Positions 4,322 through 43,686 of a DNA stretch of 64,000 bases are shown piece after piece. The stretch spans positions 2,768,726 to 2,832,725 of the forward strand of contig NZ_LN890655.1 of the NCBI RefSeq assembly GCF_900066015.1, written 5' to 3'. The DNA comes from Candidatus Promineifilum breve. GTDB lineage: Bacteria; Chloroflexota; Anaerolineae; Promineifilales; Promineifilaceae. Below the pieces are notes generated by a model, which was given only the letters and a program-made list of their open reading frames with translations, had not been told where the DNA came from and ran no database searches. The position numbers and the translations under genes were made by a program. Positions within the stretch are counted from its first letter, which is position 1. Each line of letters opens with the position of its first letter.

Positions 4322-6037
4322 ATGACCCCAGAAACCATCTTCGGCCGCATGGCCACCGTCGAAGTCCGTAGCCAGTTGGCCCAATTGCGCTTGCAGGGCA
4401 TCCAGCACCGCCGCCGTCTGTCGCCCGGCTCGCCCCGGGCCGGGGAGCAGCCAACCGTCAGCGTCATCGTCGGCCCGGAGTTGCCGGTCGATGAGGTCGT
4501 TTGCCTGGTGACCGAGCCGGAGGCGGCCGTCGTGCCCCTGCGGCGGGTCAAGACAGAATGGGATCTCGCCCTGTGGGCTTATTACGAGGTGTGGGAGGCG
4601 GCGCTGCCGGCCCACCCGGCCGGCACACTGGTGCGCTACCAGATTCGCGCCCACGACGAGGACAGCGGCGAGACCTATTGGGCCGACGAGGCGACCGAGT
4701 ACTCCTACGTCGTTGGCGATTCCGGCCCGCCGGCCTGGGCGCTGCCGGCCATCATCTATCAGATTTTCCCCGACCGCTTCTCGCCCGGCGCGGGCCGCGC
4801 CTGGAACCCGGCCGCGCGCCTGTCCGACATCTACGGCGGCACGTTGCGCGGCGTCATCGACCATCTCGACTACATCGCCGGGCTGGGCTTCACGGCCATC
4901 TGGCTCAACCCGTTCTTCCCCGACGACACCCACCACGGCTACCACGCCAGCGACTACTTCACCGTCAACCCACGCCTGGGCACGATGGACGACATGCGCG
5001 AGCTGGTGGACAAATGCCGCGAGCGGGGCATCCGCCTGCTGCTCGACTTCGTCGCCAACCATTGGGGCAGCAAGCACGCCACCTTCCAGGCGGCGCTGGC
5101 CGACCGTCACAGCCCCTATTACGATTGGTATTACTGGAAAAACTGGCCGGGCGAATACACGGCCTACTTCGACGTGCTCGACCTGCCCAAGCTCAACGTC
5201 AATCACCCCGCCGTGCGCGATCACCTGTTGCGTAGCATCGGCTTCTGGCTGGGCGATGTGGGCTTCGACGGGCTGCGGCTCGACCACGCCGACGGGCCAT
5301 CCTACGATTTCTGGACCGACGCCCGCGCCGTGGCCCGCAGCGTGCGCCCCGATGCCTGGATGTTCGGCGAACTCATCCGGCCGCCCGACCAGCAGCTCAG
5401 CTACGCCGGCCTGTTCGACGGCACGCTCGACTTCCTGCTGTGCCAGGCCATGCGCCGCACCTTTGCCGCCGGCGACATGACCCTGGCCGGCTTCGACGCC
5501 TTCCTGAACCGCCACGAGGCTTACTTCCCGTCGCAGGCCGCCTTCAGCCGCCCCAGCTTCCTGGACAACCACGATATGAACCGCTTCCTCTGGCAGGCCG
5601 GCGGCGACAAGCAAAAGCTGAAGCTGGCCGCGCTGACCCAGTTCACGCTGGCCGGCGCGCCCATCGTCTACAACGGCACGGAGGTCGGCGTGACCCAGGA
5701 GCGGGCTATCCACGCGCCCGATAGCCAGGGCATGGAGGAGTGCCGCCAGCCGATGCTGTGGGGCGAGGCCCAGGACAGCGATCTATCGTCCTACTTCTGG
5801 TATCTGAGCCATCTGCGGCGCGATCATTCGGCCCTGTGGCGCGGCAGCCGCCAGACGCTCCACTTGGATTCGGCCGCCCAGACCTACGCCTACGTCCGCG
5901 ACGACGGCCACGAGGCGGCCATCGTCGGCCTCAACCTGAGCGGCGAGGAGCGCGCCTTCACCGTGCCCTACGTGCCGCGCGCGGCGTCGGCCACCTTCAC
6001 CCTGCCGCCCCAGAGCGGCGACGTGGCCTTCATCTAA
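4322..6037 (+). CDS. Alpha-amylase family GH13 enzyme (cyclomaltodextrinase / neopullulanase type)
   Basis: The 571-aa product has no signal peptide and should act in the cytoplasm on imported maltodextrins. Residues about 1-130 form the N-terminal beta-sandwich typical of GH13_20 enzymes, and about 140-500 the TIM barrel. The catalytic triad is visible: Asp321 in 'GLRLDHADG', Glu350 in 'MFGELIRPP' and Asp418 in 'FLDNHDMNRF'. The block 'LLLDFVANHWG' is conserved region I. A small C-terminal beta domain ends the protein. There is no clear ribosome binding site; ATG 4349 is an alternative start. Together with the permease fragment and the GH57 lipoprotein it makes an alpha-glucan utilisation group. 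Confidence 0.9.
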   Translation: MTPETIFGRMATVEVRSQLAQLRLQGIQHRRRLSPGSPRAGEQPTVSVIVGPELPVDEVVCLVTEPEAAVVPLRRVKTEWDLALWAYYEVWEAALPAHPAGTLVRYQIRAHDEDSGETYWADEATEYSYVVGDSGPPAWALPAIIYQIFPDRFSPGAGRAWNPAARLSDIYGGTLRGVIDHLDYIAGLGFTAIWLNPFFPDDTHHGYHASDYFTVNPRLGTMDDMRELVDKCRERGIRLLLDFVANHWGSKHATFQAALADRHSPYYDWYYWKNWPGEYTAYFDVLDLPKLNVNHPAVRDHLLRSIGFWLGDVGFDGLRLDHADGPSYDFWTDARAVARSVRPDAWMFGELIRPPDQQLSYAGLFDGTLDFLLCQAMRRTFAAGDMTLAGFDAFLNRHEAYFPSQAAFSRPSFLDNHDMNRFLWQAGGDKQKLKLAALTQFTLAGAPIVYNGTEVGVTQERAIHAPDSQGMEECRQPMLWGEAQDSDLSSYFWYLSHLRRDHSALWRGSRQTLHLDSAAQTYAYVRDDGHEAAIVGLNLSGEERAFTVPYVPRAASATFTLPPQSGDVAFI

Positions 6038-6055
6038 CGAGGGCGGCGGCGCTGT

Positions 6056-8563
6056 ATGAGCAACGGCCGTCAGGCGTCAATGAGCGGGGCGCGCGCCCGG
6101 CGCTGGGCGATGGTCGCCGTGCTGCTGCTGGGCTTCTTCCTGCGCGTCCATCGCATCGGCGAGCAGCGCGTCTGGTGGGATGAGGGCTGGTCGGTCTGGG
6201 CGGCGCGCTTTTCGCCGCTGGACATCCTGCGCCAGACGGGCAACGACGTCCACCCACCGCTCTATTTCCAATTACTCCACCTTTGGCGGGCGCTGAGTGG
6301 CGACGAGGCCGCGGTGCTGCGGCTGCTGTCGGCCTTTCTCGGTCTGCTGGCCGTGGCCCTGACCTACGCCCTCGGCCGGCGCATGGCCCGCGGCAACCTG
6401 TCGCCCGGCTGGGCCACGCTGGCCGGCTTGCTGGCGGCGCTCCTGCTGACCGTCTCGCGCTTCGCCATCGCCTGGTCGCAGGAGATTCGCATGTACGCCC
6501 TGGCGACGCTGCTGGCCCTGCTGGCCGTTTGGGCGGCGCGGCGGGTCTGGCAGGGCGGCCGGCGGCGCGACGCGGCGCTCTACGTGGCGGCTACAACGGC
6601 CGGCCTTTACACGCTCTATCTCTTCGCGCCGGTGTGGCTGGCGATTAACGTTGCCTGGCTGTGGACGTGGCGCGCGGCGGACCGGCGGCGCGCGGCGGCC
6701 GAGCGGCGGCGTGAACTTTGGCGCTGGGCCGGGCTGCAACTGCTCATCGTTGCCCTGTTCCTGCCCTGGGCGCTCTACGCGGCGGGCGGGTTTCTCAACA
6801 CGGCCTCGGCCACGCCCATCCGCCCCCTCGACTTTCTCCACATCTACTGGACGGTGCTAACCGTCGGCATCCCCGTTGACGTGTCCCAGTTCAACCGCCT
6901 GACGCTGCCGGCCCTGGGCATTTTCCTGCTGGCCGTCGGCGCGCTGGTCTTCCACGCGCTGGCCGCCTCTCGCCGTCCATCAACACTCGACGCCGCCAAT
7001 TCTTCACCCGCCACCCGCCACCCGCCACCCGCCACCTCTTCCCGCGGTCAGCGGTCGGTCGTCCGTGGTCATCTCCGCGATCTGACCTTGCTGTTATCCA
7101 TCCTTCTCCTGCCCGCCCTCATCGTCTACTTCGTCTCGCTGCCCCGGCAGAACTTCTACAACCCGCCCTTCAACCCGCGCTATCTGGTGATTTTCACGCC
7201 GTTTTATAGCATCTTGTTGGCGTGGGGGGTGGCGGCGCTGGGGAGCAGGGGAGCGGGGGTGCAGGGGAGCAGGGGGGAGAGTGGTCAGTGGTCAGTGGTC
7301 AGTGGTCTCCTGGCCCTGAGCCTGTCCGCCTTCATGCTGGCCGTGGCGCTGGTTGGGCTGCGGCCGTACTATCCGGGGCGGGTGTTGGTGGATGATTACC
7401 CCTCGCTGGTCAGTACGATAGGGGCCTACCGCCGGCCGGGCGATGCCGTGGTGCTCTATAGCGACACCGATTGGCCCATCTTCGCCTATCATCACCCCGA
7501 CGAGTGGCGCGGCGTGCCCGGCGCGTGGACAGTGACGCCGGAACTGGCCGGCGACTTCCTGACGCCCATCTGGGAAGAGCACGAGGCGATCTGGCTGGTG
7601 ACGACGCCCTACAGCGCCGGCGGCGACCCGCAGCGTTACCTGCCGGCCTGGCTGGCCGAGCGGGCCACGGCCGTGCGCGAATTCAGCTACAAGGACATGG
7701 CCCTGACGCTCTACACCCGGACGGCCGAACGCGCCGCGCTGGCCGACCACCTGCCCAGCGACACCCCCGGTAACCTCGATGTGCCCCTGCCGGGCGGCGG
7801 CACGCTCGTCGGCTACAGCCAGGCGGCCCATGACTTCAAGAGCGGCGACATCATCCACCTGTTCCTCTACCGGCAGGGCGGGGATAAGGGGCAGACGGAG
7901 GTCGGGCTGATCGACGCCGCATCGAGCAACGTGTGGGCGATTACCCCGGTCGAATGGCCGGCTACGGATGGCCTGGCCCGCCAACAGGTGGACATCCTCG
8001 TGCCGCCCGAAGCGCCGTCGGGCGATTACCGCCTCTACGTCCACGACGCCGGCGGGGCGACGGTTCCTTTCGGCCGCCTGACTGTTCGGCAGAAACAGGC
8101 CGAATTCTTGACCCTCGGCGACGTGACCATCGCCAATCCGGTCGAAGCCCAGTTCGGCGCCGGCATCCGCCTGGTGGGGTATGACCTGGCCGCGACGACA
8201 GTTCGGCCGGGCGAAATGGTCGGCCTGACGCTCTATTGGTCTTCCGACGGCGACGTGGGGCAACGGTACAAGGTCTTCACCCATCTCCTGGGCGACGTGT
8301 TCAACGCCACGACCGGCAACTTCCTGTGGGGTCAGGTCGATAGCGAGCCGGCGGCCAATACCCGGCCGACGACGACATGGCGCGCGGGCGAGATTATCGC
8401 CGATGAGTACGCCATCCCCTTGGCCGCCGACGCGCCGCCGGGCACGTACCGCATCGAGATCGGCCTCTACGACGCCGTGAGCGGTGAGCGGCTGCCCCTG
8501 CTTGGCCCGGATGGCGCGCCCGCGGCCGATCACCTGATCCTGACCGTCGTCGAAGTCGAGTAG
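6056..8563 (+). CDS. Multi-spanning membrane glycosyltransferase (ArnT/PMT, GT39-like) with extracytoplasmic C-terminal domains
   Basis: The 835-aa product starts 18 bases after the GH13 gene. Residues about 15-480 carry many membrane helices. The N-terminal pattern 'WWDEGWSVW' followed by 'HPPLYF' is the conserved loop of the ArnT/PMT superfamily, whose members move sugars from polyprenyl-phosphate donors on the outer face of the membrane. Residues about 490-835 form soluble beta-rich domains. The second of these resembles the C-terminal domain of the paralogous gene at 25402-27453. Two stretches (residues about 316-340 and 395-417) are translated genome repeats, rich in 'PATRHPP' and 'GSRG', and lie between membrane helices. 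The acceptor is unknown. ATG 6080 is an alternative start. Confidence 0.8.
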   Translation: MSNGRQASMSGARARRWAMVAVLLLGFFLRVHRIGEQRVWWDEGWSVWAARFSPLDILRQTGNDVHPPLYFQLLHLWRALSGDEAAVLRLLSAFLGLLAVALTYALGRRMARGNLSPGWATLAGLLAALLLTVSRFAIAWSQEIRMYALATLLALLAVWAARRVWQGGRRRDAALYVAATTAGLYTLYLFAPVWLAINVAWLWTWRAADRRRAAAERRRELWRWAGLQLLIVALFLPWALYAAGGFLNTASATPIRPLDFLHIYWTVLTVGIPVDVSQFNRLTLPALGIFLLAVGALVFHALAASRRPSTLDAANSSPATRHPPPATSSRGQRSVVRGHLRDLTLLLSILLLPALIVYFVSLPRQNFYNPPFNPRYLVIFTPFYSILLAWGVAALGSRGAGVQGSRGESGQWSVVSGLLALSLSAFMLAVALVGLRPYYPGRVLVDDYPSLVSTIGAYRRPGDAVVLYSDTDWPIFAYHHPDEWRGVPGAWTVTPELAGDFLTPIWEEHEAIWLVTTPYSAGGDPQRYLPAWLAERATAVREFSYKDMALTLYTRTAERAALADHLPSDTPGNLDVPLPGGGTLVGYSQAAHDFKSGDIIHLFLYRQGGDKGQTEVGLIDAASSNVWAITPVEWPATDGLARQQVDILVPPEAPSGDYRLYVHDAGGATVPFGRLTVRQKQAEFLTLGDVTIANPVEAQFGAGIRLVGYDLAATTVRPGEMVGLTLYWSSDGDVGQRYKVFTHLLGDVFNATTGNFLWGQVDSEPAANTRPTTTWRAGEIIADEYAIPLAADAPPGTYRIEIGLYDAVSGERLPLLGPDGAPAADHLILTVVEVE
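7004..7070. repeat. In-frame CCACCCGC tandem repeat inside a glycosyltransferase gene
   Basis: Tandem copies of an octamer like CCACCCGC, then CGGTCAGCGGTCGGTCG, lie in frame within the 6056-8563 gene. The same octamer family forms intergenic palindromes at 11994-12078, 41979-42079 and 43130-43205. Confidence 0.8.
7240..7306. repeat. In-frame GGGGAGCAGGGG / GTGGTCAGTGGTC repeat
   Basis: Copies of GGGGAGCAGGGG and then three copies of GTGGTCA are read in frame in the glycosyltransferase. The first family recurs at 26540-26590 (also inside a gene) and at 56439-56543 (intergenic). Confidence 0.8.
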
Positions 8564-21315: not shown

Positions 21316-21326
21316 TTCGTTTCCTA

Positions 21327-21670
21327 AGAATGGCTACGGATGATGACGGATGATACGGATATTCACGGGAAAGCGCTTCGATACTAATCCCGGCTTTAAA
21401 TCCGTTATTTCAGTATGAATCCGTAGCCAATTCTTACGAACGAAGAATGGCTACGGATGATGACGGATGATACGGAAATTCACGGGAAAGCGTTTCTATA
21501 CTAATCCTGGCTTTAAATCCGTTTTTTCCGTGCGAATCCGTAGCTAATTCTTACGAACGAAGAATGGCTACGGATGATGACGGATGATACGGATATTTAC
21601 CGCTTACCGGCTTTTTATTTATCATCGTCTAAATCCGTTTATCCCGTGCGAATCCGTAGCCAATTCTTCC
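21327..21670. repeat. Three tandem ~116-bp palindromic repeats
   Basis: Three head-to-tail copies begin with AAGAATGGCTACGGATGATG at about 21327, 21439 and 21558. Each copy is itself an imperfect palindrome of about 35-base arms (ending ATCCGTAGCCAATTCTT). The copies are about 90% alike except the middle of the third. They fill the 357-base gap inside an operon, between the CARDB protein and the permease, so they must be transcribed. Confidence 0.9.
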
Positions 21671-25401: not shown

Positions 25402-27453
25402 CTAGGGAGTAGCCAAGACGTGGTCGCCCAGGTAGAAGGTATCGCCGCCGCCGGTCAATTGGGCGCGCACCACATCGGGCCAGGCGTAGAGGGCCACGGC
25501 CGCGCGATACTCGCCGTCGGGCAGGTCGGCCGGGATGGGCAGGGGGTGGAAGGTGACGAAACGGTCGCCCGCCCGCCACTGCACGCTGTCGAAGCCGGGG
25601 CCGTCGTGCTGACTCACCACGTTGCCCGCCGCGTCGAGCAGGTAGACGCCGAAATGCTGCACCGTCGCCGGCGGCCCGGCGGCCTGCCACGTCAGCAGCA
25701 GCCGCATCTCCTCGCCGGGCCTTAGTTCGTCAGGCGAATAGGCCAGCAGGTCGAGACCGGTGTCCCACGAGGCGAGGACGGGCGCGGCGGCGGTGTCCGG
25801 CGCGGCCCAGTCGTAGAATTGCCACACCTGATCGTTCACGGCCACCTGCGCGTTGGAGATAGGCTCGGCCTGGTCGGCGATGATGTAGGAGGCCAGGCTG
25901 CCCGGCCGGGTGACGAGATAGACCGCGCAGGGGGACGGCCGCGGCAACGCCAGATCGCCATCGGCCAGGATAACCCGCGCCGGATCGACGAACTCCTGTA
26001 GCAGGGCCAGGTCGGAGTTTTCCACCTGATGGCCGCGGCCGAGACCGACGAGGCGGCAGGCCGGCCGCTCGGCCAGCAGGCGGCGCGAGGTGTCGATGAG
26101 CGTTCGCGCGTGGCGCACCTGGATATCCGGCCCGCTGCCGGCCGCCCGCGCGTCCTGATAGCGCAGCGAGAAGAAGACCTGATAGGCGAACAGGGCGAGA
26201 AGGAGGGCGGGGGCAAGTTGGCGGATGACCGCGGACCACCGACCGCGAACCGCCCGCTCGTCTGCGAGCGCCCGCTCGTCTGCGAGCGCCGACCGCCGTT
26301 CGAGCAACCGCAACGCCGTGTCCAGGCCGATGCCCAGGATCATAAAGTGGGCCGGCCATTGGCCGACCAGATAGTAGTTCTGCAAATAGACTGCCGCGCG
26401 TAAATAGAACAGCAGCGGCATCAGGAACCAGAGCAGGATGATCGAGAGGGCGATGAATTGCGAGTGGCGGGTGGCGGCAGACCCTCTCCCCAGCCCTCTC
26501 CCGGAGGGAGAGGGGGCCAGATTCCTCTCCCCCTGGGAGAGGTTAGGAGAGGGTTCCGGGGGCGGGTTCGCCCCTGCCCCCCTGCTCCCCCAAAGCCGCC
26601 CCACCACCAGCGCCAACGCCGCCACGAACAACCCCGCCGCCAGCGCGTCGAAGGCCACCACGCGCGGTACGGCGCGGTAGAGGCCCTGGGCGCGGATGAG
26701 ATCGAGGCTGAGCAGGACGGCCGCGCCGCTGAAGCGCGCTGCCTGCCCGGCCACATCGCCGATGGCCCGGAAGTCGGCCCAGCCGGTGCCGATCTGGTAG
26801 AGGAGATAGGGCAGATAGAGCAGGGCGAAGACGGCCGCGCCAACCAACACGTGGGCCGGGCGCACCCGCCGCCGGAAGAGGAGCAGGGCCAGCCCCATCG
26901 TCACCAGTTGGACGGCCGAACCCGGATGCACCTGGGTCATGGCCGCTGCCCCGGCAGAGGCGACGACCAGATAGACGGCCCGCGGCCGGTGGGCCAGATA
27001 GAGCAGCAGCCCGCCCAACGCCAACGCGGCGAAGGGTGGCACCATCGTCTGGTTCCAGATGAGCTGGCTCCAGAAGACGGCCCACGGGGCGACGGCGAAG
27101 GCCAGCATGGCCCATAGCCCGGCGCGGCGGCCGAAGAGGCGCGCCGTGACCAGGCCGGTGACGGCCACGGCCAGCAGCCCGCCGAACATGGTCAGCAGCG
27201 AGACGCTGAGGATGTCGGGCCACAGCCACAGGGCGAACCCGTAGAGGTACTCGATCAGCGGCGGGTTGACGAAGCCGACCGACGACTTGTTGGCCGCCAG
27301 CGGTAGCGCCCCGCCGTTGACCCAGCGCATGGCCGTGTTGAGGGTAAACGCCTGATCGCCCCACAGGCCGGTGGTGGTTAGCCCGCGCAGGCGCAGGAAG
27401 AAGGCGAGAAGCAGGATGCCCGCCGCGAGGAGGCTGCCGGTTGGTTTACGCAT
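25402..27453 (-). CDS. Multi-spanning membrane glycosyltransferase (ArnT/PMT-like), paralogue of 6056-8563
   Basis: The 683-aa product has about ten to twelve membrane helices up to about residue 420. The N-terminal loop 'GLWGDQAFTLNTAMRW' with 'NPPLIEYLYG' corresponds to the donor-site loop of the ArnT/PMT superfamily. The C-terminal soluble part (about 440-683) is beta-rich and resembles the last domain of the paralogue ('RPGEEMRLLLTW' against 'RPGEMVGLTLYW'). Two genome repeats are read in frame: residues about 289-327 ('NLSQGERNLAPSPSG') and about 388-403 ('ALADERALADER'). It starts 13 bases after the P-type ATPase gene. The acceptor is unknown. Confidence 0.8.
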   Translation of the reverse strand: MRKPTGSLLAAGILLLAFFLRLRGLTTTGLWGDQAFTLNTAMRWVNGGALPLAANKSSVGFVNPPLIEYLYGFALWLWPDILSVSLLTMFGGLLAVAVTGLVTARLFGRRAGLWAMLAFAVAPWAVFWSQLIWNQTMVPPFAALALGGLLLYLAHRPRAVYLVVASAGAAAMTQVHPGSAVQLVTMGLALLLFRRRVRPAHVLVGAAVFALLYLPYLLYQIGTGWADFRAIGDVAGQAARFSGAAVLLSLDLIRAQGLYRAVPRVVAFDALAAGLFVAALALVVGRLWGSRGAGANPPPEPSPNLSQGERNLAPSPSGRGLGRGSAATRHSQFIALSIILLWFLMPLLFYLRAAVYLQNYYLVGQWPAHFMILGIGLDTALRLLERRSALADERALADERAVRGRWSAVIRQLAPALLLALFAYQVFFSLRYQDARAAGSGPDIQVRHARTLIDTSRRLLAERPACRLVGLGRGHQVENSDLALLQEFVDPARVILADGDLALPRPSPCAVYLVTRPGSLASYIIADQAEPISNAQVAVNDQVWQFYDWAAPDTAAAPVLASWDTGLDLLAYSPDELRPGEEMRLLLTWQAAGPPATVQHFGVYLLDAAGNVVSQHDGPGFDSVQWRAGDRFVTFHPLPIPADLPDGEYRAAVALYAWPDVVRAQLTGGGDTFYLGDHVLATP
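26245..26293. repeat. In-frame CGCTCGTCTGCGAG repeat
   Basis: Two tandem copies of CGCCCGCTCGTCTGCGAG are read in frame in the glycosyltransferase (residues ALADER twice), in a predicted loop between membrane helices. Confidence 0.7.
26473..26590. repeat. In-frame CCTCTCCCCAGCCCTCTCCC palindrome
   Basis: CCTCTCCCCAGCCCTCTCCC and its inverse, followed by a GGGGCAGGGG-type unit, are read in frame as an extended Pro/Gly/Ser loop. The same family forms the MoaD-MoaE linker at 42555-42671. Confidence 0.85.
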
Positions 27454-27466
27454 GGGATGATTCGAC

Positions 27467-29776
27467 TCATCCCAATTCTACTGCCGGACGCGGCCACCGC
27501 AACAAGCGCATGCCGTTGGCCGTCACCAGCAGCGACGTGCCCATGTCGGCCAGCACGGCCAGCCACATGCTGCCGCCGCCCAGCAGCACCAGCACGAAGA
27601 AAACGAGCTTGATGGCGATGCTGAGAGCGACGTTGAAGCGCACGGTGCTCATGGCGCTGCGGGCCAGACGGACGGCAAACGGCAACTGGCGCAGGTCGTC
27701 GCCCAGCAGCACGACGTCGGCCGTCTCCAGCGCCTGGGCCGCCCGGCCCATCGCCACGCCGACCGAAGCCGAGGCCAGCGCCGGGGTGTCGTTGATGCCG
27801 TCGCCGACCATTGCCACCGCGCCATGGGCGGCGCGCAATTCTGCCACGGCCGTCACCTTATCGGCCGGCAACAGCCCGGCGCGCACGTCGGTCAGGCCAA
27901 CCTCGGCGGCGATGCGCTCGGCCGTGGCCGCGTGGTCGCCGGTCAGCATGACCAGCGGCGCAATGCCCATGCCCGCCAGTTCGGCCAGGGCGGCGCGGCT
28001 GCCGTCGCGGGTGGCGTCGGCCAGGGCGATGTAGCCCAGGTAGGTATCGCCGTCGCGCACCAGCATCGTCGTCAGCCCGGCGGCGTCGGCGGCGGCGATG
28101 TCGGCGTGGAACGGGTCGTGGCCGGCGTCGTCCTCGAAATAGGCGTGGCTGCCCACGGTGATCGTCCGCCCATCGACCCGGCCGGTGATGCCCCGGCCGG
28201 TCAGTGCGGTCACATTGCCGGCCGGATAGCGGTCGGCCACGCCGCGGGCCGTGGCCTCGGCCACCACCGCCCCGGCCAAGGGGTGCTCGCTGCGCCGTTC
28301 GACGGCGGCGGCGAGGGCGAGGAGGTTATCGCAGGGAGTGCAAATGACGAATGACGAATGACGAATGACGAATTCAGACTCGTCATTCGTCATTTTCTCG
28401 ACGCAATCGGCGGCATGGACGGCCACGACCGCCGGTTTGCCGCGGGTGATGGTGCCGGTCTTGTCGAAGGCGATGGCGCGGACGCGACTGAGTTCTTCGA
28501 GCACCGCGCCGCCCTTGACCAGCACGCCGTGGCGCGCGCCGTTGCTGATGGCGCTGATGAGCGTGACCGGCGTACTGATGACCAGCGCGCAGGGGCAGGC
28601 GACCACCAGCAGGGCCAGGGCGCGATAGAGCCAGCCCTGCACGTCGGGGGCCGGATTCCAGAACGGCGCGTCGAAAAACAGCGGTGGCACGACGGCCACC
28701 AGCAGGGCCACGGCGATGACCGCCGGGGTGTAGACGCGGGCAAAGCGGTCGACGAAGCGTTGGGCCGGGGCGCGGCGATCCTGGGCCTCGCTCACCAGAG
28801 CGATCATGCGGCTGATGGTGTTGTCGGCCGCCAGATGGGTGATCTCGATCTCCAGCGCGCCGGGGCCGTTGACGCTGCCGGCGTAGACTTCGTCGCCGGG
28901 GACTTTATCGACCGGGCGGCTTTCGCCGGTGATGGGGGATTGATCGACGGCCGATTCGCCGGCCAGCACGCGGCCGTCCATCGGCAGGCGCTCGCCGGGC
29001 ACGACGGCGATGCGGTCGCCGACGCGCAAGGTGGCCACGGGCACGCGGCTCTCCACGCCGTCGCCCAGCAGCGTGGCCTCGGCCGGGGCCAGGGCCGACA
29101 GACTGCCGATGGCGTCGCGGGCGCGGGCGGCGGTGTAGCCTTCCAGCGCCTCGCCCAGGGCGAAGAGCACCATGACCAGCCCGGCCTCGGTGTAGGCCCC
29201 GATGATGACCGCGCCGACGGCGGCGATGGTCATCAGTAAATTGATGGTGATCTCGCGGTTGACGCGCAGAGTGCGGACGGCGCTGCGGGCGATGGGGTAG
29301 CCGGCCATGACCATCGCCAGCACGGCCATCGCCGCGAACAGGGGCGACGCGATGCCCAGGCCGGGCAATAGCTCATCGAACAGCACGCCGGGGATAATGA
29401 GCAGCGCGGCCAGCAGAGCCAGGCGTGTGTCCCAGCGCGCCCAGAGGTAGGGCAAGAGACCGCCGACGGCTGACCGCTGACCGCCGCCAGAGGGAGTGTG
29501 GTCGTGGCCGTGCGCGTCTCTTTCAACGGTCGTCGGTCGGCCGTCGGCCGTCGTTCCCGCGGTCAGCGGTCGGCCGTCGGCGGTCGTAACGTCATAGCCC
29601 AGTTCGCGCACCCGAGCGACGACGCGCTCCGGGGCCACTTCGCCCTCGACGCGCAGCGCGCCGGTGGTGAAGTTAATCGTCGCCGCGCGCACGTCGGGCA
29701 GCTTGGCGACGCCGCGCTCGATGCTCAGGGCGCAGTTGGCGCAATCCATGCCGGTTATTTGATAGCGTTGTTCCAT
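27467..29776 (-). CDS. Heavy-metal-translocating P1B-type ATPase (Zn/Cd/Pb type)
   Basis: The 769-aa pump has an N-terminal HMA domain with 'GMDCANC' (residues 9-15), then a His-rich linker 'HGHDH', eight membrane helices with the ion-site motif 'VACPCALVIS', phosphorylation site 'DKTGTIT' and hinge 'GDGINDTPAL'. The last helix 'SMWLAVLADMGTSLLV' is typical of Zn/Cd/Pb (ZntA/CadA) pumps rather than Cu pumps. Two genome repeats are read in frame: residues about 62-104, between HMA and the first helix, and about 460-477, just after the phosphorylation site. It likely exports zinc and counterbalances the uptake operon at 12-15 kb. Confidence 0.93.
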   Translation of the reverse strand: MEQRYQITGMDCANCALSIERGVAKLPDVRAATINFTTGALRVEGEVAPERVVARVRELGYDVTTADGRPLTAGTTADGRPTTVERDAHGHDHTPSGGGQRSAVGGLLPYLWARWDTRLALLAALLIIPGVLFDELLPGLGIASPLFAAMAVLAMVMAGYPIARSAVRTLRVNREITINLLMTIAAVGAVIIGAYTEAGLVMVLFALGEALEGYTAARARDAIGSLSALAPAEATLLGDGVESRVPVATLRVGDRIAVVPGERLPMDGRVLAGESAVDQSPITGESRPVDKVPGDEVYAGSVNGPGALEIEITHLAADNTISRMIALVSEAQDRRAPAQRFVDRFARVYTPAVIAVALLVAVVPPLFFDAPFWNPAPDVQGWLYRALALLVVACPCALVISTPVTLISAISNGARHGVLVKGGAVLEELSRVRAIAFDKTGTITRGKPAVVAVHAADCVEKMTNDESEFVIRHSSFVICTPCDNLLALAAAVERRSEHPLAGAVVAEATARGVADRYPAGNVTALTGRGITGRVDGRTITVGSHAYFEDDAGHDPFHADIAAADAAGLTTMLVRDGDTYLGYIALADATRDGSRAALAELAGMGIAPLVMLTGDHAATAERIAAEVGLTDVRAGLLPADKVTAVAELRAAHGAVAMVGDGINDTPALASASVGVAMGRAAQALETADVVLLGDDLRQLPFAVRLARSAMSTVRFNVALSIAIKLVFFVLVLLGGGSMWLAVLADMGTSLLVTANGMRLLRWPRPAVELG
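28340..28396. repeat. In-frame ATGACGAA palindrome inside the P-type ATPase
   Basis: Four tandem ATGACGAA copies answered by inverted TTCGTCAT copies form a hairpin inside the gene. On the coding strand they encode residues such as 'NDESEFVIRHSSFVI'. The same octamer family forms the palindrome at 29786-29850, directly upstream of this gene. Confidence 0.85.
29465..29595. repeat. In-frame CGGTCGTCGG repeat block
   Basis: Repeats of CGGTCGGCCGTCGG-type and inverse GCTGACCGCTGACC units are read in frame as 'TADGRP' repeats and 'GGGQRSAVGG' around the His-rich 'HGHDH' segment of the P-type ATPase linker. Confidence 0.75.
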
Positions 29777-29785
29777 AGGGTTAAT

Positions 29786-29850
29786 TACGAATGACGAATG
29801 ACGAATGACGAATGCGGATTACATACGATCTTCATTCGTAATTACCATCA
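29786..29850. repeat. ATGACGAA palindrome upstream of the P-type ATPase
   Basis: AATTACGAATGACGAATGAC with two more copies and the inverse TCATTCGTAATT form a palindrome covering the expected promoter/leader of the ATPase gene. The gap 29777-29913 holds nothing else recognisable. Confidence 0.82.
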
Positions 29851-31558: not shown

Positions 31559-34500
31559 CTAAAACCTTTCCAATTGCGACAAATCCGCCACCCCCACCGA
31601 CAGCCCGGCCACGCGCTGTAACAGCGCCAGCCGATTCTCGCGCACGGTGGCGTCCTCGTCCATGATCAGCACGGCGTCGAACAGGGCGGTGATGGGCGGC
31701 GTCAGGCGGCGCAGCGCGGCGATGAAGGTCTCCACCGTGCCGTCCTTCTCAGCCTCGGCGGCCAATAAACCGTCCAGCAAGCCCCGTTCCTCGGCCACGC
31801 CCAGGGCGTCGGGCCGCAGCGTGTAGCTGTCCTTCAGCGGCCGGGTGATGCGCACGCAGCGGGCGAAGGCGTTGAGCGTCGTCGCCCAATCGGCGGCCTG
31901 GGTGGCCGCGCCGAGGGCGGCGGCGGCCCGGCCGGCGGCATAGGGATCGTGGGCCTGCTCGGCCAGCACGGCCTTGACCACACTGCTGGGGTGGCCGGCG
32001 TCGCGCAGCACCACTTCCAGCCGGCCAGCGATGAAGGCCATCACCTCGGCGCGGGCCGGCGCGCTCCACGGCAGCGGCAGCAGCGCCCCGGCCGCGTCCA
32101 GCCCGGCCCGCAGGTCGAACTGTTGCCCGTTGGCGGTCAGATTCTCGATGAGGTGCAGCGCCGCCCGGCGCAGAGCGAACGGATCATTCGATCCCTTTGG
32201 CCCCAGCCCGGCGGCGAACAGCCCGGCCAGACTATCCAGCCGGTCGGCCACGGCCAGGGCCAGCCCCGGCCGCGTGGCGCTGACGGCCTCGTACTGCTCG
32301 GCGATGGCCGCGGCCACCTCGGCCGGTTCGCCGCCGCGCAGGGCGTAATGGCCGCCCATCTTGCCTTGCAGCGAGGTCATCTCCACGACCATCGTCGTCG
32401 CCAGATCGGCCTTAGCCAGCGCCGCGGCCCGGCCGGCCGTGGCCCGCTCGGCGTCGCTCAGCCCCAGCATTCCGGCTACGACCGGAACCAGTTGTTCCAA
32501 CCGGCGGGTCTTATCGAGCAGCGAGCCGAGTTCGGTCTGGAAGGTCAGCTTGCCCAGATCGGGCACGAACGCATCCAGGCTGCGCTGCACGTCCTTATCG
32601 TAGAAGAAGGCCGCGTCGGCGAACCGGGCGCGGATGACGTGCTCGTTGCCGTCGCGCACCACGTCGAGATGCTCCTCGTCGCCGTTGCGCACGGCGATGA
32701 AATGGGGCAGCAGCTTGTCCCCCTTGTAGACCGGGAAGTAGCGCTGGTGCTTGCGCATGACGGCCACCAGCACCATCGGCGGCAGGGCCAGGAAGCGCTC
32801 CTCGAACGAACCCAGCAGCGGCGTCGGCCGCTCCACCAGGTTGGTCACCTCGTCCAGCAGGGCGGGGTCGTCGGGGATGTGGCCGCCGACCGAGCGGGCC
32901 AGTTCGGCCGCGCCGGCGGCGATAGCCTTGCGCCGGGCCGATTCATCGAGCACGATGGTGGCGTTGTCGATGGCGACGTGGTAATCGGCGGCGTGGCGCA
33001 CCTCGATGGCGGGCGAGCCGAAGGGGCGCAGACCATAGGTGACGCGCCCGCTGTGGACGCCGGCATAGTTGAAGGGCACCACGGCCGGGCCGTGCAGGGC
33101 CAGCAGCCAGCGCAACGGGCGGCTATAGCTGACGTTGCTACTGTTCCAGCGCATCGATTTCTCGAACTTAAGCCCGGCGATGAGTTCGGGCAGGCGTTCG
33201 GCCAGCACCTCCAGCGACGGCCGCCCGGTCTCGCGCACCACGGCCGAGACGTAACGCTTGCCGCCCTCTTCCACCACGCTCAGGTCATCGACCGACAGGC
33301 CGCGGCTGCGGGCGAAACCGGCCGCGGCCGGGGTGGGCTGGCCGTCCTTATCGAAGGCGCGGTCGGCCGGCGGCCCCTTGACCACGCTCTCGCTATCGGC
33401 CCCGCGCTCGGCCAGGCCGTCGACGCGCACGGCCAGCCGGCGCGGCGTACCGTCGATCTCCAGGCGCTCGTACTCCAGCCGGGCGGCGTCGAGCAGGGCG
33501 GGCACGGCGGTGCGCAGCTGGGCCAGCGCCGCCTTCAGATCGCCGTGGGGTAACTCCTCGCTGCCGATCTCCAGCACGAATGGGTCGCCGTCTTCGGGGG
33601 TGGCGGGTGGCGCGTGGCGGGTGGCGTGGGCGTCGTGGACGGCGGGGGCAGGATCTTCCTCATTGGTCTTTTGCGCCCACGCCGCATTCCCGGTAAAGGG
33701 ATACTCCAGCCGTTGCCGCTGCTCGACGTAGGTGGCCGAGACCTTGTTGGCGACGCGGCGCATGCGGCCGAAGTAGTTGGCCCGCTCGGTGACGCCGACC
33801 GCGCCGCGCGTATCGAGCACGTTGAACAGTTGCGAACATTTCAGGTTGTAGTCGTGGGCCGGGGCCACCAGTCCGGCATCGAGGCAGCGATTGGCCTCGC
33901 GCTCGTAGGTGTCGTAGATCATCTTCAGCGCGTCCACGTCGGCCACGTTGAAGTAGTAGTGGCAATGCTCGATCTCGGCTTGCAGCAGGGCATCGCCATA
34001 GCGCACGCCCGCGCCGTACTCCATCTCCCACACGCTGTTCACCCCTTGCAAGGCCAGGGCGATGCGGTCGAGGCCGTAGGTGATCTCCACCGATACCGGG
34101 TCGAGGTCCAGGCCGCCGGCCTGCTGGAAGTAGGTGTATTGGGTGATCTCCTGGCCGTCGAGCCACACCTCCCAGCCCAACCCCCACGCGCCGAGGGCCG
34201 GCGATTGCCAGTTGTCCTCGACGAAGCGGATGTCGTGCTCGCGCTGGCTGATGCCGATGGCTTCCAGACTCTTCAGGTATAGCTCGATGGGATTGCCGGG
34301 GTCGGGCTTCAGGATGACCTGCAACTGGTAATGTTGCTGCATACGGTTGGGATTGTCGCCGAAGCGGCCGTCGTCGGCGCGGATGCTCGGCTCAACGTAG
34401 GCCACTTTCCACGGCTCCGGGCCGAGGACGCGCAGGATGGTGGCCGGGTTCATCGTGCCCGCGCCGACCTGCACGTTATACGGCTGCCAGACGAGGCAGC

Positions 34501-34567
34501 CCTGCTCCTGCCAATACTCCAGCAGGCGGAGGATCATTTGTTGGAAGCTTAGTTTTTCGATAGACAC
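31559..34567 (-). CDS. glyQS: Glycyl-tRNA synthetase, fused alpha-beta chain
   Basis: The 1002-aa product joins the alpha subunit (residues about 1-305, '[19 protein letters not shown]', '[12 protein letters not shown]') and the beta subunit (about 330-1002, '[10 protein letters not shown]') that are separate proteins in most bacteria using this enzyme type. The beta part includes the C-terminal DALR-type anticodon-binding region. The junction, residues about 310-330, contains 'ATRHAPPAT', which is translated genome repeat (33597-33632). The start is GTG with no clear ribosome binding site. It charges tRNA-Gly in the cytoplasm. A long palindrome separates it from recO. Confidence 0.96.
33597..33632. 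repeat. In-frame GGCGGGTGGCGCGTGGCGGG repeat at the GlyQ-GlyS junction
   Basis: Copies of the GTGGCGGG octamer family, otherwise intergenic at 11994-12078 and 41979-42079, lie exactly in the linker between the two halves of GlyQS. Confidence 0.8.
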
Positions 34568-34623
34568 GTTAATCAGTATCCAGTAGGTCGGGATTCTATA
34601 AGTCAGTCGGGGATTATACCACG

Positions 34624-34734
34624 GGAAGAATAGAACGCGGATGACGCGGATCAGGCGGATTTTCGCGGATCAGATAAATCCATTCCGATCCGCGTCGATC
34701 CGTAAAATCCGTGTCATCCGCGTTCTATTCTTCC
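34624..34734. repeat. Long palindrome with GCGGATGAC tandem arms overlapping the recO stop
   Basis: Arms of about 48 bases (34624-34671 and 34686-34734) are each built from GCGGAT(C/G)A units and begin with GGAAGAATAGAACGCGGATG. The right arm contains the last three sense codons and the TAG of recO (34725-34727). It fills most of the recO-glyQS gap (34568-34724). Confidence 0.88.
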
Positions 34735-41978: not shown

Positions 41979-42079
41979 AACGCCAGGGCGTAGCGAGTGG
42001 CGGGTGGCAAGTGGCGGGTGGCGCGTCGGCATACTCGCCACACGCCACCCGCTACTCGCCACCCGCTTCTCCCAGCGTT
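41979..42079. repeat. GGCGGGTGGCAAGTGGCGGG palindrome between moaDE and fabF
   Basis: The outer ends AACGCC...GGCG(A)TT type and inner octamers GTGGCGGG / GTAGCGAG versus CCACCCGC / TACTCGCC make a palindrome of about 100 bases. It overlaps the TAA stop codon of the MoaD-MoaE gene (42078-42080) and fills the gap 41941-42077. Confidence 0.85.
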
Positions 42080-42944
42080 AACGCTTCTCATTGTCATTCT
42101 CTGTCGGCCGGTATTGCCCCTCGACCCAGACGCTGCGGTCGGCGCCGACTTCCTTTTTCCACACCGGCACGATCTCCTTGAGCCGGTCGATGCCGTAGCG
42201 CGCCGCCTCGAATACGCCCACGTCACGGTGCGCCCCGGCGCAGGCCACAAAAGTCGTTGTCTGGCCCACGCCCAGGCGGCCGAGGCGCTGCACCAGGGCC
42301 ACGCCGCGCACCTCCGGCCAGCGCGCCCACATTTCGCGGGCGATCTGGGCCATTTTCTCCTCGGCCATGCTTTCGTAGGCTTCATAATCGAGGTGGAGCG
42401 TCGCCGGGGGCAGGCCGTCGCGCTGGGTGCGGCCGCGCACGAAGCCGGTGAAGCTGACGATTGCGCCGATTTCCGGGCCGCTGAGGTGGGCGTGGATGGC
42501 TTCTATGTCGAGGGGGGCGGTGGTTATGGCGAAGTAGGTGGGGTGGGGAGAAAAACCCTCTCCCCAGCCCTCTCCCGGGGGGAGAGGGAGTTGGCCCTCT
42601 CCCCAGCCCTCTCCCGGGGGGAGAGGGGGTTGGCCCTCTGCCCAGCCCTCTCCCGGGGGGAGAGGGGGTTGGCTCTCGTCCGGGGGGAAGGGGGTTTGGC
42701 CGCCGCTGACGGGGGGGAAGATGGCTACCTCGTCGCCCAGGGTTACCGGGGTTTCCGACCCGGCAAAGGCGCGATTGACGGCCACCAGCGCCGAGCGCAG
42801 AGCCGGAGCCAGCGCCGGGTAGTCGGCCCCCACCGCTTCCAGCAGCAACCCGACCGTCGTCGGGTCGGCCGGCAGCCTCACGCGGATGCGGTCGCTCCCG
42901 GCGCGATCCTTCAACGTGGCGAATAGACGGATTTCAATCTCCAT
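42078..42944 (-). CDS. Molybdopterin synthase, MoaD-MoaE fusion with repeat-derived linker
   Basis: The 288-aa product joins a MoaD-like small subunit (residues 1-82, ending 'IFPPVSGG', the Gly-Gly that is normally the free thiocarboxylated C terminus) to a MoaE-like large subunit (about 138-288). MoaE has 'IVSFTGFVRG', 'HRDVGVFEAARYGID' and the catalytic 'VPVWKKE'. The linker (83-137) contains three 13-residue repeats 'QPPLPPGEGWGEG' encoded by a genome repeat. Fused MoaD-MoaE (MoaX) is known in mycobacteria, where cleavage after Gly-Gly is needed; the same would be expected here. ATG 42944 is preferred to a GTG at 42968. It is downstream of moaC on the same strand. Confidence 0.9.
   Translation of the reverse strand: MEIEIRLFATLKDRAGSDRIRVRLPADPTTVGLLLEAVGADYPALAPALRSALVAVNRAFAGSETPVTLGDEVAIFPPVSGGQTPFPPDESQPPLPPGEGWAEGQPPLPPGEGWGEGQLPLPPGEGWGEGFSPHPTYFAITTAPLDIEAIHAHLSGPEIGAIVSFTGFVRGRTQRDGLPPATLHLDYEAYESMAEEKMAQIAREMWARWPEVRGVALVQRLGRLGVGQTTTFVACAGAHRDVGVFEAARYGIDRLKEIVPVWKKEVGADRSVWVEGQYRPTENDNEKR
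42555..42671. repeat. Three tandem 39-bp repeats read as the MoaD-MoaE linker
   Basis: Three near-identical 39-base units, each with CCCTCTCCCCAGCCCTCTCC and its inverse GGGGGGAGAGGG, are read in frame as 13-residue repeats. The same element is in the glycosyltransferase gene at 26473-26550. The unit length, divisible by three, preserves the reading frame. Confidence 0.9.
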
Positions 42945-43012
42945 AAGCCGGTCAGTGCCATCCGGCACCCCTATCTTAAATAAAACCCCCGCGCGGTCAG
43001 TTCGATGCGGTT

Positions 43013-43205
43013 AGTGGACAGTGGGCAGTGGATAGTGGGCAGTGGACAGTGGGTAGTGGGCAGTAGATCGCTATCCCAATCGCTATCGCATTCGCAATCG
43101 TTCTAAACGCCCCACGCAATTCAGCAGTTTTCACGCGCCACTCGCCACTCGCCACCCGCCACCCGCCACGCGCTACTCGCCACCCGCCACCCGCCACTCC
43201 CCACT
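43013..43205. repeat. Composite repeat block between moaC and moaDE
   Basis: Three families adjoin: AGTGGACAGTGGGTAG octamers (43013-43065), ATCGCTATCCCAATCGC-type units (43068-43100), and CCACTCGCCACCCGCC octamers (43135-43205). The last block encodes the final residues and TAG of moaC (43173-43175). The gap 42945-43172 contains no gene. Confidence 0.85.
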
Positions 43206-43661
43206 CCTCCCCCCCGCCTTGCTAATCAGCCGCACATCGGTCAGGCGCATGTCGCGGTCGACGGCCTTCGCCATGTCGTAGATCGTCAGTCCGGCGACGG
43301 TCACCGCCGTCAGGGCTTCCATCTCCACGCCCGTCTTGCCCGACACGCGCACCGTGGCCTCGATGTCGATGGCGCTGGCGTCCGGGTTGGGGGCGCAGGT
43401 GACGACGACCTGATTGAGCAGCAGCGGATGGCAGAGGGGGATGAGTTCGCTGGTGCGCTTGGCGGCCATGATGCCGGCCACCTGGGCCACGGCCAGCACG
43501 TCGCCCTTCTTCAGGCCGCCTTCCATGATAAGGTCGAGCGTGTCGGGGCGCATGGTGACCCGGCCGCGGGCCACGGCCACGCGCTCGGTCACGGCTTTGT
43601 CGCCTACGTCAACCATCGTGGCGCGGCCGGTCTCGTCCAGGTGGGTCAGGCGCTTGGTCAT
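43173..43661 (-). CDS. moaC: Cyclic pyranopterin monophosphate synthase MoaC
   Basis: The 162-aa product is of normal length and has '[18 protein letters not shown]', the active-site block 'IPLCHPLLL' and '[21 protein letters not shown]'. It makes cyclic pyranopterin monophosphate in molybdenum cofactor synthesis. The last seven residues ('EWRVAGGE' end) and the stop are encoded by the GTGGCGGGTGGCGAGTAG repeat, which joins the native MoaC ending at the conserved Ser-Gly. A TATAAT (43671-43676) precedes the start by 10 bases without a good -35. Confidence 0.94.
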
Positions 43662-43686
43662 AGTTGTGGTATTATACCCCAATTCC

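What the first reader, a model, noticed from the sequence alone, without database searches (positions are those of the whole stretch)
42555..42671. Genome repeat used as the linker of a MoaD-MoaE fusion
Three 39-bp units of an otherwise repetitive palindromic element are read in frame as three 13-residue Pro/Gly/Glu repeats exactly between the MoaD and MoaE domains. A repeat insertion at the MoaD end could have created the fusion and then expanded as a frame-preserving linker. The same element lies in a glycosyltransferase loop (26473-26550).
Basis: partly seen in the sequence, partly recalled or inferred. Interest (0 to 1): 0.85.

Follow-up and report, generated by a model that had tools for sequence, protein, structure and literature searches.

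The report
DNA repeat inserted in MoaD-MoaE linker
A short, widespread bacterial DNA repeat sits in frame in the linker of an already fused cofactor-making protein; it did not create the fusion, but it is one of about sixteen such insertions in genes of this genome, a rarely described habit for this repeat.

Summary
Three 39-bp units (42556-42671) are read in frame as QPPLPPGEGW(A/G)EG repeats, directly after the MoaD Gly-Gly and before MoaE.

All six genus-mates with the locus, and 44 of 47 family genomes in all, have the same fusion. The relatives' linkers are short and unrelated, and five of those six genus-mates lack the repeat genome-wide. The fusion is old and the repeat landed in its variable linker later.

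The repeat is the known G/C-rich intrastrand-triplex motif (TM/PIT; CCCTCTCCC-loop-GGGAGAGGG-CTG-GGGAGAGGG), found across many phyla. In E. coli it is reported to be always intergenic. Here 16 of 37 clusters lie in frame inside 13 genes, in all six frames. Genus-mates checked for three of these genes carry other sequence in the same variable loop.

The fusion most likely works like MoaX and Deinococcus MoaD-MoaE: a JAMM protease cuts after Gly-Gly, leaving the repeat peptide as a MoaE N-terminal tail. In support, one JAMM type is found in 42 of 44 fused family genomes and in 0 of 3 with split genes. Cleavage itself is untested.

The parts
42078..42968 (-). moaDE fusion ORF, 296 aa from GTG; likely start is ATG at 42944 (MEIEIRLFATLKDRAG)
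   Evidence: dN/dS about 0.1-0.2 against genus-mates in both domains
42699..42932 (-). MoaD (ThiS, beta-grasp) domain ending FPPVSGG; the last Gly-Gly is the expected cleavage and thiocarboxylation site
   Evidence: PF02597 residues 13-90; GG conserved in all relatives with the locus
42672..42697 (-). decayed half-unit (QTPFPPDES) between the Gly-Gly and the array
   Evidence: sequence; inference from similarity to CAACCCCCTCTCCCCCCGGGAGAG
42555..42671 (-). three 39-bp triplex-motif units, read as 3 x 13 residues
42174..42527 (-). MoaE catalytic domain
   Evidence: PF02391 residues 148-265; alignment to solved MoaE chains including 9jbd MoaX
26482..26543 (-). single degenerate copy of the same element, in frame in a glycosyltransferase-like membrane protein (ORF 25402-27453)

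Best explanation
The MoaD-MoaE fusion is an old trait of this family. Independently, a widespread G/C-rich intrastrand-triplex (TM/PIT) repeat entered the naturally variable linker of one species' gene and expanded in tandem. It was tolerated because the 39-bp unit keeps the frame, carries no stop in the frame used and encodes a flexible Pro/Gly/Glu peptide. The linker lies on the MoaE side of the Gly-Gly where a JAMM protease is expected to cut, so the repeat peptide should become a passive N-terminal tail of MoaE. Shown: age of the fusion, repeat identity, the many other in-frame insertions, purifying selection on both domains, and co-occurrence of one JAMM type with the fusion. Inferred: the insertion route, slippage as the expansion mechanism, cleavage, and neutrality of the tail.
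For: Genus-mates G001-G006 are all fused with linkers such as SGQL, NEQS, QGDAPAGEAGAF. G002 carries the repeat elsewhere but not here. 44 of 47 family genomes are fused. There are 52 repeat hits in the own genome; 16 of 37 clusters lie in frame in 13 genes and six frames. AlaRS, TPP-enzyme and hydantoinase genes of genus-mates have unrelated sequence in the same loop. The unit matches the published TM motif (PMC4666352). dN about 0.07-0.16 against dS about 0.5-1.35. The L086-type JAMM is in 42 of 44 fused and 0 of 3 split genomes, Fisher p = 6e-4 uncorrected for kinship; split genomes keep only the other, CysO-linked type, while fused G031 and G073 lack that type. Cleavage after Gly-Gly is shown for MoaX (PMC4326299) and by DRJAMM (PMC8832034).
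Against: No reads, transcript or protein data. The JAMM correlation rests on three split genomes in one small clade, and two fused but incomplete genomes (G009, G012; 76-78% complete) lack that JAMM. G014 and G011 have the JAMM without a detected MoaE. The dN/dS values average over a divergence that may largely predate the insertion.
Confidence: 0.85

Rival explanations
1. The repeat insertion removed the moaD stop codon and created the fusion, then expanded.
For: The repeat sits exactly at the domain boundary, and split relatives end MoaD right at Gly-Gly.
Against: All genus-mates with the locus are fused without the repeat, and 5 of these 6 lack it genome-wide.
Confidence: 0.02
2. The repeat peptide is a selected linker: its length or Pro/Gly/Glu sequence tunes processing or MoaE partnering, and copy-number change adjusts it.
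For: The array is long, intact and tandem in a conserved gene; the TM motif is associated with genetic instability in E. coli (PMC4666352).
Against: The element is read in all six frames elsewhere, so the peptide is not what is maintained; relatives need only about 1-18 residues.
Confidence: 0.1
3. The array, or its frame, is an assembly artefact.
For: G/C-rich repeats are hard to assemble (general knowledge); no reads were available, so nothing in the tool results argues for this directly.
Against: Frame intact across three non-identical units, high-contiguity genome, many independent in-frame copies in the same genome.
Confidence: 0.04

Closest known systems
G/C-rich intrastrand triplex motif TM_ECO / PIT (Holder et al. 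2015, PMC4666352); CCCTCTCCCXX(X)GGGAGAGGG repeats of Enterobacter sp. 638 (PMC2869309)
   Same: Same Y9-loop-R9-3nt-R9 sequence, including the CTG second loop; many copies per genome; many phyla
   Different: E. coli copies are reported as always intergenic; here nearly half of the clusters examined are inside genes and some are tandem arrays
Rickettsia and Wolbachia palindromic elements (RPE, WPE)
   Same: Palindromic repeats inserted in frame in unrelated genes without evident loss of function
   Different: RPEs are about 150 bp with a conserved peptide (PMC10969869); here the unit is 33-39 bp, a different sequence and read in all six frames
Fused molybdopterin synthase MoaX (M. tuberculosis) and DR2607 (D. 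radiodurans)
   Same: MoaD-GG-MoaE in one chain, with a JAMM gene in the genome (as in D. radiodurans)
   Different: About 50-residue repeat-derived linker; cleavage not tested here

Membership tests
TM/PIT intrastrand triplex motif | Pyrimidine arm, loop of 1-6 nt, purine arm, short loop, second purine arm (CCCTCTCCC-n-GGGAGAGGG-nnn-GGGNGAGGG) | tested here: met
   CCCTCTCCC-CCC-GGGAGAGGG-CTG-GGGAGAGGG against Table 1 of PMC4666352; one of the three units has one change in the last arm (GGGCAGAGGG)
TM/PIT intrastrand triplex motif | Many copies dispersed in the genome | tested here: met
   52 hits in the own genome
TM/PIT intrastrand triplex motif | Triplex formation by the single strand | not testable with these tools
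   Only hairpin energy was computed (z -1.9); needs CD/NMR
TM/PIT intrastrand triplex motif | Intergenic location (as described in E. coli; not part of the sequence definition) | tested here: not met
   16 of 37 clusters lie in frame in genes
Rickettsia palindromic element | Palindromic repeat in frame in unrelated genes | tested here: met
   13 genes
Rickettsia palindromic element | About 150 bp with a conserved encoded peptide | tested here: not met
   33-39 bp unit, six frames used; works like an RPE, is not one
MoaX-type fused MPT synthase | MoaD and MoaE in one ORF with Gly-Gly at the junction | tested here: met
MoaX-type fused MPT synthase | Cleavage after Gly-Gly | not testable with these tools
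   Candidate JAMM genes with the HSH-x7-SxxD motif are present

The most novel reading that the evidence does not exclude
In this lineage TM/PIT triplex repeats behave as protein-invading elements: they enter variable loops of conserved, even essential, enzymes and then change copy number in frame-preserving steps, supplying new linkers at a measurable rate. A dedicated JAMM protease makes the MoaDE linker a tolerant landing site.
Probability: 0.35. Interest if true: 0.6.

Novelty: new variant of a known kind. Interest (0 to 1): 0.4.

Why it matters
It shows a repeat regarded as intergenic repeatedly inserted in frame in genes, including alanyl-tRNA synthetase, and gives a clean with/without comparison among genus-mates. 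It also yields a testable assignment: which of two JAMM proteases matures fused molybdopterin synthase in this lineage.

Tried and rejected
Internal start for MoaE: no ATG, GTG or TTG codon in frame between the Gly-Gly and the conserved MoaE start, so a separate MoaE would need an unusual start. Selected peptide: rejected as the main cause because six frames are used. Six-frame openness as something special: 41% of shuffled 39-mers are also stop-free in six frames, and one of the three units has a stop in one frame of the opposite strand. Frame-multiple periods in coding arrays (39, 42 bp) against non-coding ones (also 40, 46, 47, 95, 97, 140 bp) fit selection for frame, but the numbers are too small to claim. 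A coding test of repeats in other genomes found few clear cases: a Planctomycetota restriction enzyme (L116) and a gammaproteobacterial RecD-like helicase (L107). AlphaFold was not run: for folding, the tool does not list relatives fetched by the genome search, so the fusion would have been folded from a single sequence.

Full report
Observation. The 39-bp array is real and in frame. It begins 9 residues after the MoaD Gly-Gly; those 9 residues (QTPFPPDES) look like a decayed half-unit. The conserved MoaE start PHPTYFAI follows two residues (FS) after the array. PF02597 and PF02391 score well above their cutoffs. There is one MoaE in the genome, so this gene encodes its only large subunit of molybdopterin synthase. 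The HR and KEIVPVWKKE segments of MoaE are conserved in the alignments to solved relatives. moaC lies directly upstream on the same strand.

Age of the fusion. Of 52 family genomes searched, 47 have a readable MoaD-MoaE junction. 44 are fused (including the window, and G002, whose contig ends just inside MoaE) and 3 are split: G013, G023 and G064. Relatives' linkers between FPPVSGG and the conserved (P)xPTYFA start are about 1-18 residues and unrelated to the repeat; the window has about 50. Order- and class-level relatives include both fused and split genes. On a MoaE tree the split genes fall in several places and at least five changes are forced by well-supported branches. In G013 and G023 the reading frame stops exactly after Gly-Gly (GGCTGATAG, GGCTGATGA). 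So fusion and fission appear to switch by stop-codon changes (inference), with no repeat needed.

What the repeat is. Read on the coding strand the unit is CCCTCTCCC-CCC-GGGAGAGGG-CTG-GGGAGAGGG, the G/C-rich class II intrastrand triplex motif of Holder et al. 2015 (PMC4666352), called PIT in earlier work cited there. It is also the CCCTCTCCCXX(X)GGGAGAGGG repeat of Enterobacter sp. 638 (PMC2869309). In this family it is patchy: 19 of 52 genomes match at the threshold, and in the genus only the window genome, G002 and G007 do.

Repeat in genes. Using a codon model trained on the window, 16 of 37 distinct repeat clusters lie in an ORF that scores as coding on both sides, in 13 genes. Pfam names many of them: hydantoinase, methylmalonyl-CoA mutase, ROK kinase, alanyl-tRNA synthetase, amidase, a TPP enzyme, NB-ARC-like ATPases, PMT-like glycosyltransferases. 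All six frames are used. In alanyl-tRNA synthetase six genus-mates have a short unrelated loop at the same place, in the TPP enzyme four have an unrelated linker there, and in the hydantoinase one has a short loop and one a different longer one. The element therefore lands, or survives, in loops that vary anyway. The cluster count depends on the search threshold and on the codon model, and the genome was not scanned base by base.

How it probably works. MoaD must end in a free Gly-Gly to be activated. MoaX of M. tuberculosis is cut between Gly82 and Ser83 and needs this for activity (PMC4326299); in D. radiodurans a JAMM protease does the cutting (PMC8832034). The genome here has two small JAMM genes with the expected motif. 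One (L087) lies beside a cysteine synthase and a CysO-like ThiS gene, so it probably serves that pathway (inference). The other (L086 type) is present in 42 of 44 fused genomes and absent from all 3 split ones; the two fused genomes without it are 76-78% complete. The split genomes keep the L087 type, and two fused genomes tested (G031, G073) lack the L087 type. This points to the L086 type as the processing enzyme, but the split genomes are close kin and the p-value (6e-4) ignores kinship. After cleavage the repeat peptide would be an N-terminal tail on MoaE. Both domains are under purifying selection relative to genus-mates.

Novelty and limits. Both ingredients are known kinds; in-frame palindromic repeats are known from Rickettsia and Wolbachia (PMC10969869, PMC4224334). 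Their combination, the TM repeat inside many genes, was not found in the papers searched, which is a limited open-access library. No reads, expression or protein data were available.

Noticed in passing
window 28343-28373 (and 29783-29814): An AATGACG heptamer repeat lies in frame inside a heavy-metal P-type ATPase ORF (27467-29776, -), giving EKMTNDESEFVIRHSSFVICTP; the same heptamer lies just upstream of its start codon. A second repeat family has entered a gene.
   Followed up: partly
window 7005-7036 and 7240-7307: Heptamer/octamer repeats (CACCCGC, GGGGAGCA, AGTGGTC) read in frame in ORF 6037-8560 (+) as [14 protein letters not shown] and GSRGAGVQGSRGESGQWSVVSG.
   Followed up: no
window 33598-33638: GGGTGGC repeat in frame in ORF 31561-34669 (-), read as [18 protein letters not shown].
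   Followed up: no
window 43132-43206: The C-terminus of moaC (43173-43682, -) is read into a CACTCGC heptamer array and ends [10 protein letters not shown].
   Followed up: no
window 21326-21597: 117-bp tandem repeat, 2.3 copies, 93% matches, overlapping the 5' end of an ORF.
   Followed up: no
L067 (G000 C1:2730100-2731900): A ROK-family kinase carries the TM repeat and, near its N-terminus, another repeat-like insertion ADFTDDADYSFFKSAKSAKSADS.
   Followed up: no
L086 and L087; family genomes G013, G023, G064: One of two JAMM protease types is missing from all three family genomes with split moaD/moaE genes, which suggests it matures the fusion.
   Followed up: yes
L116 2475-2507 (Planctomycetota), L107 521-553 (Gammaproteobacteria): The same triplex repeat appears in frame inside a type I restriction enzyme ATPase domain and a RecD-like helicase in other phyla.
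   Followed up: partly
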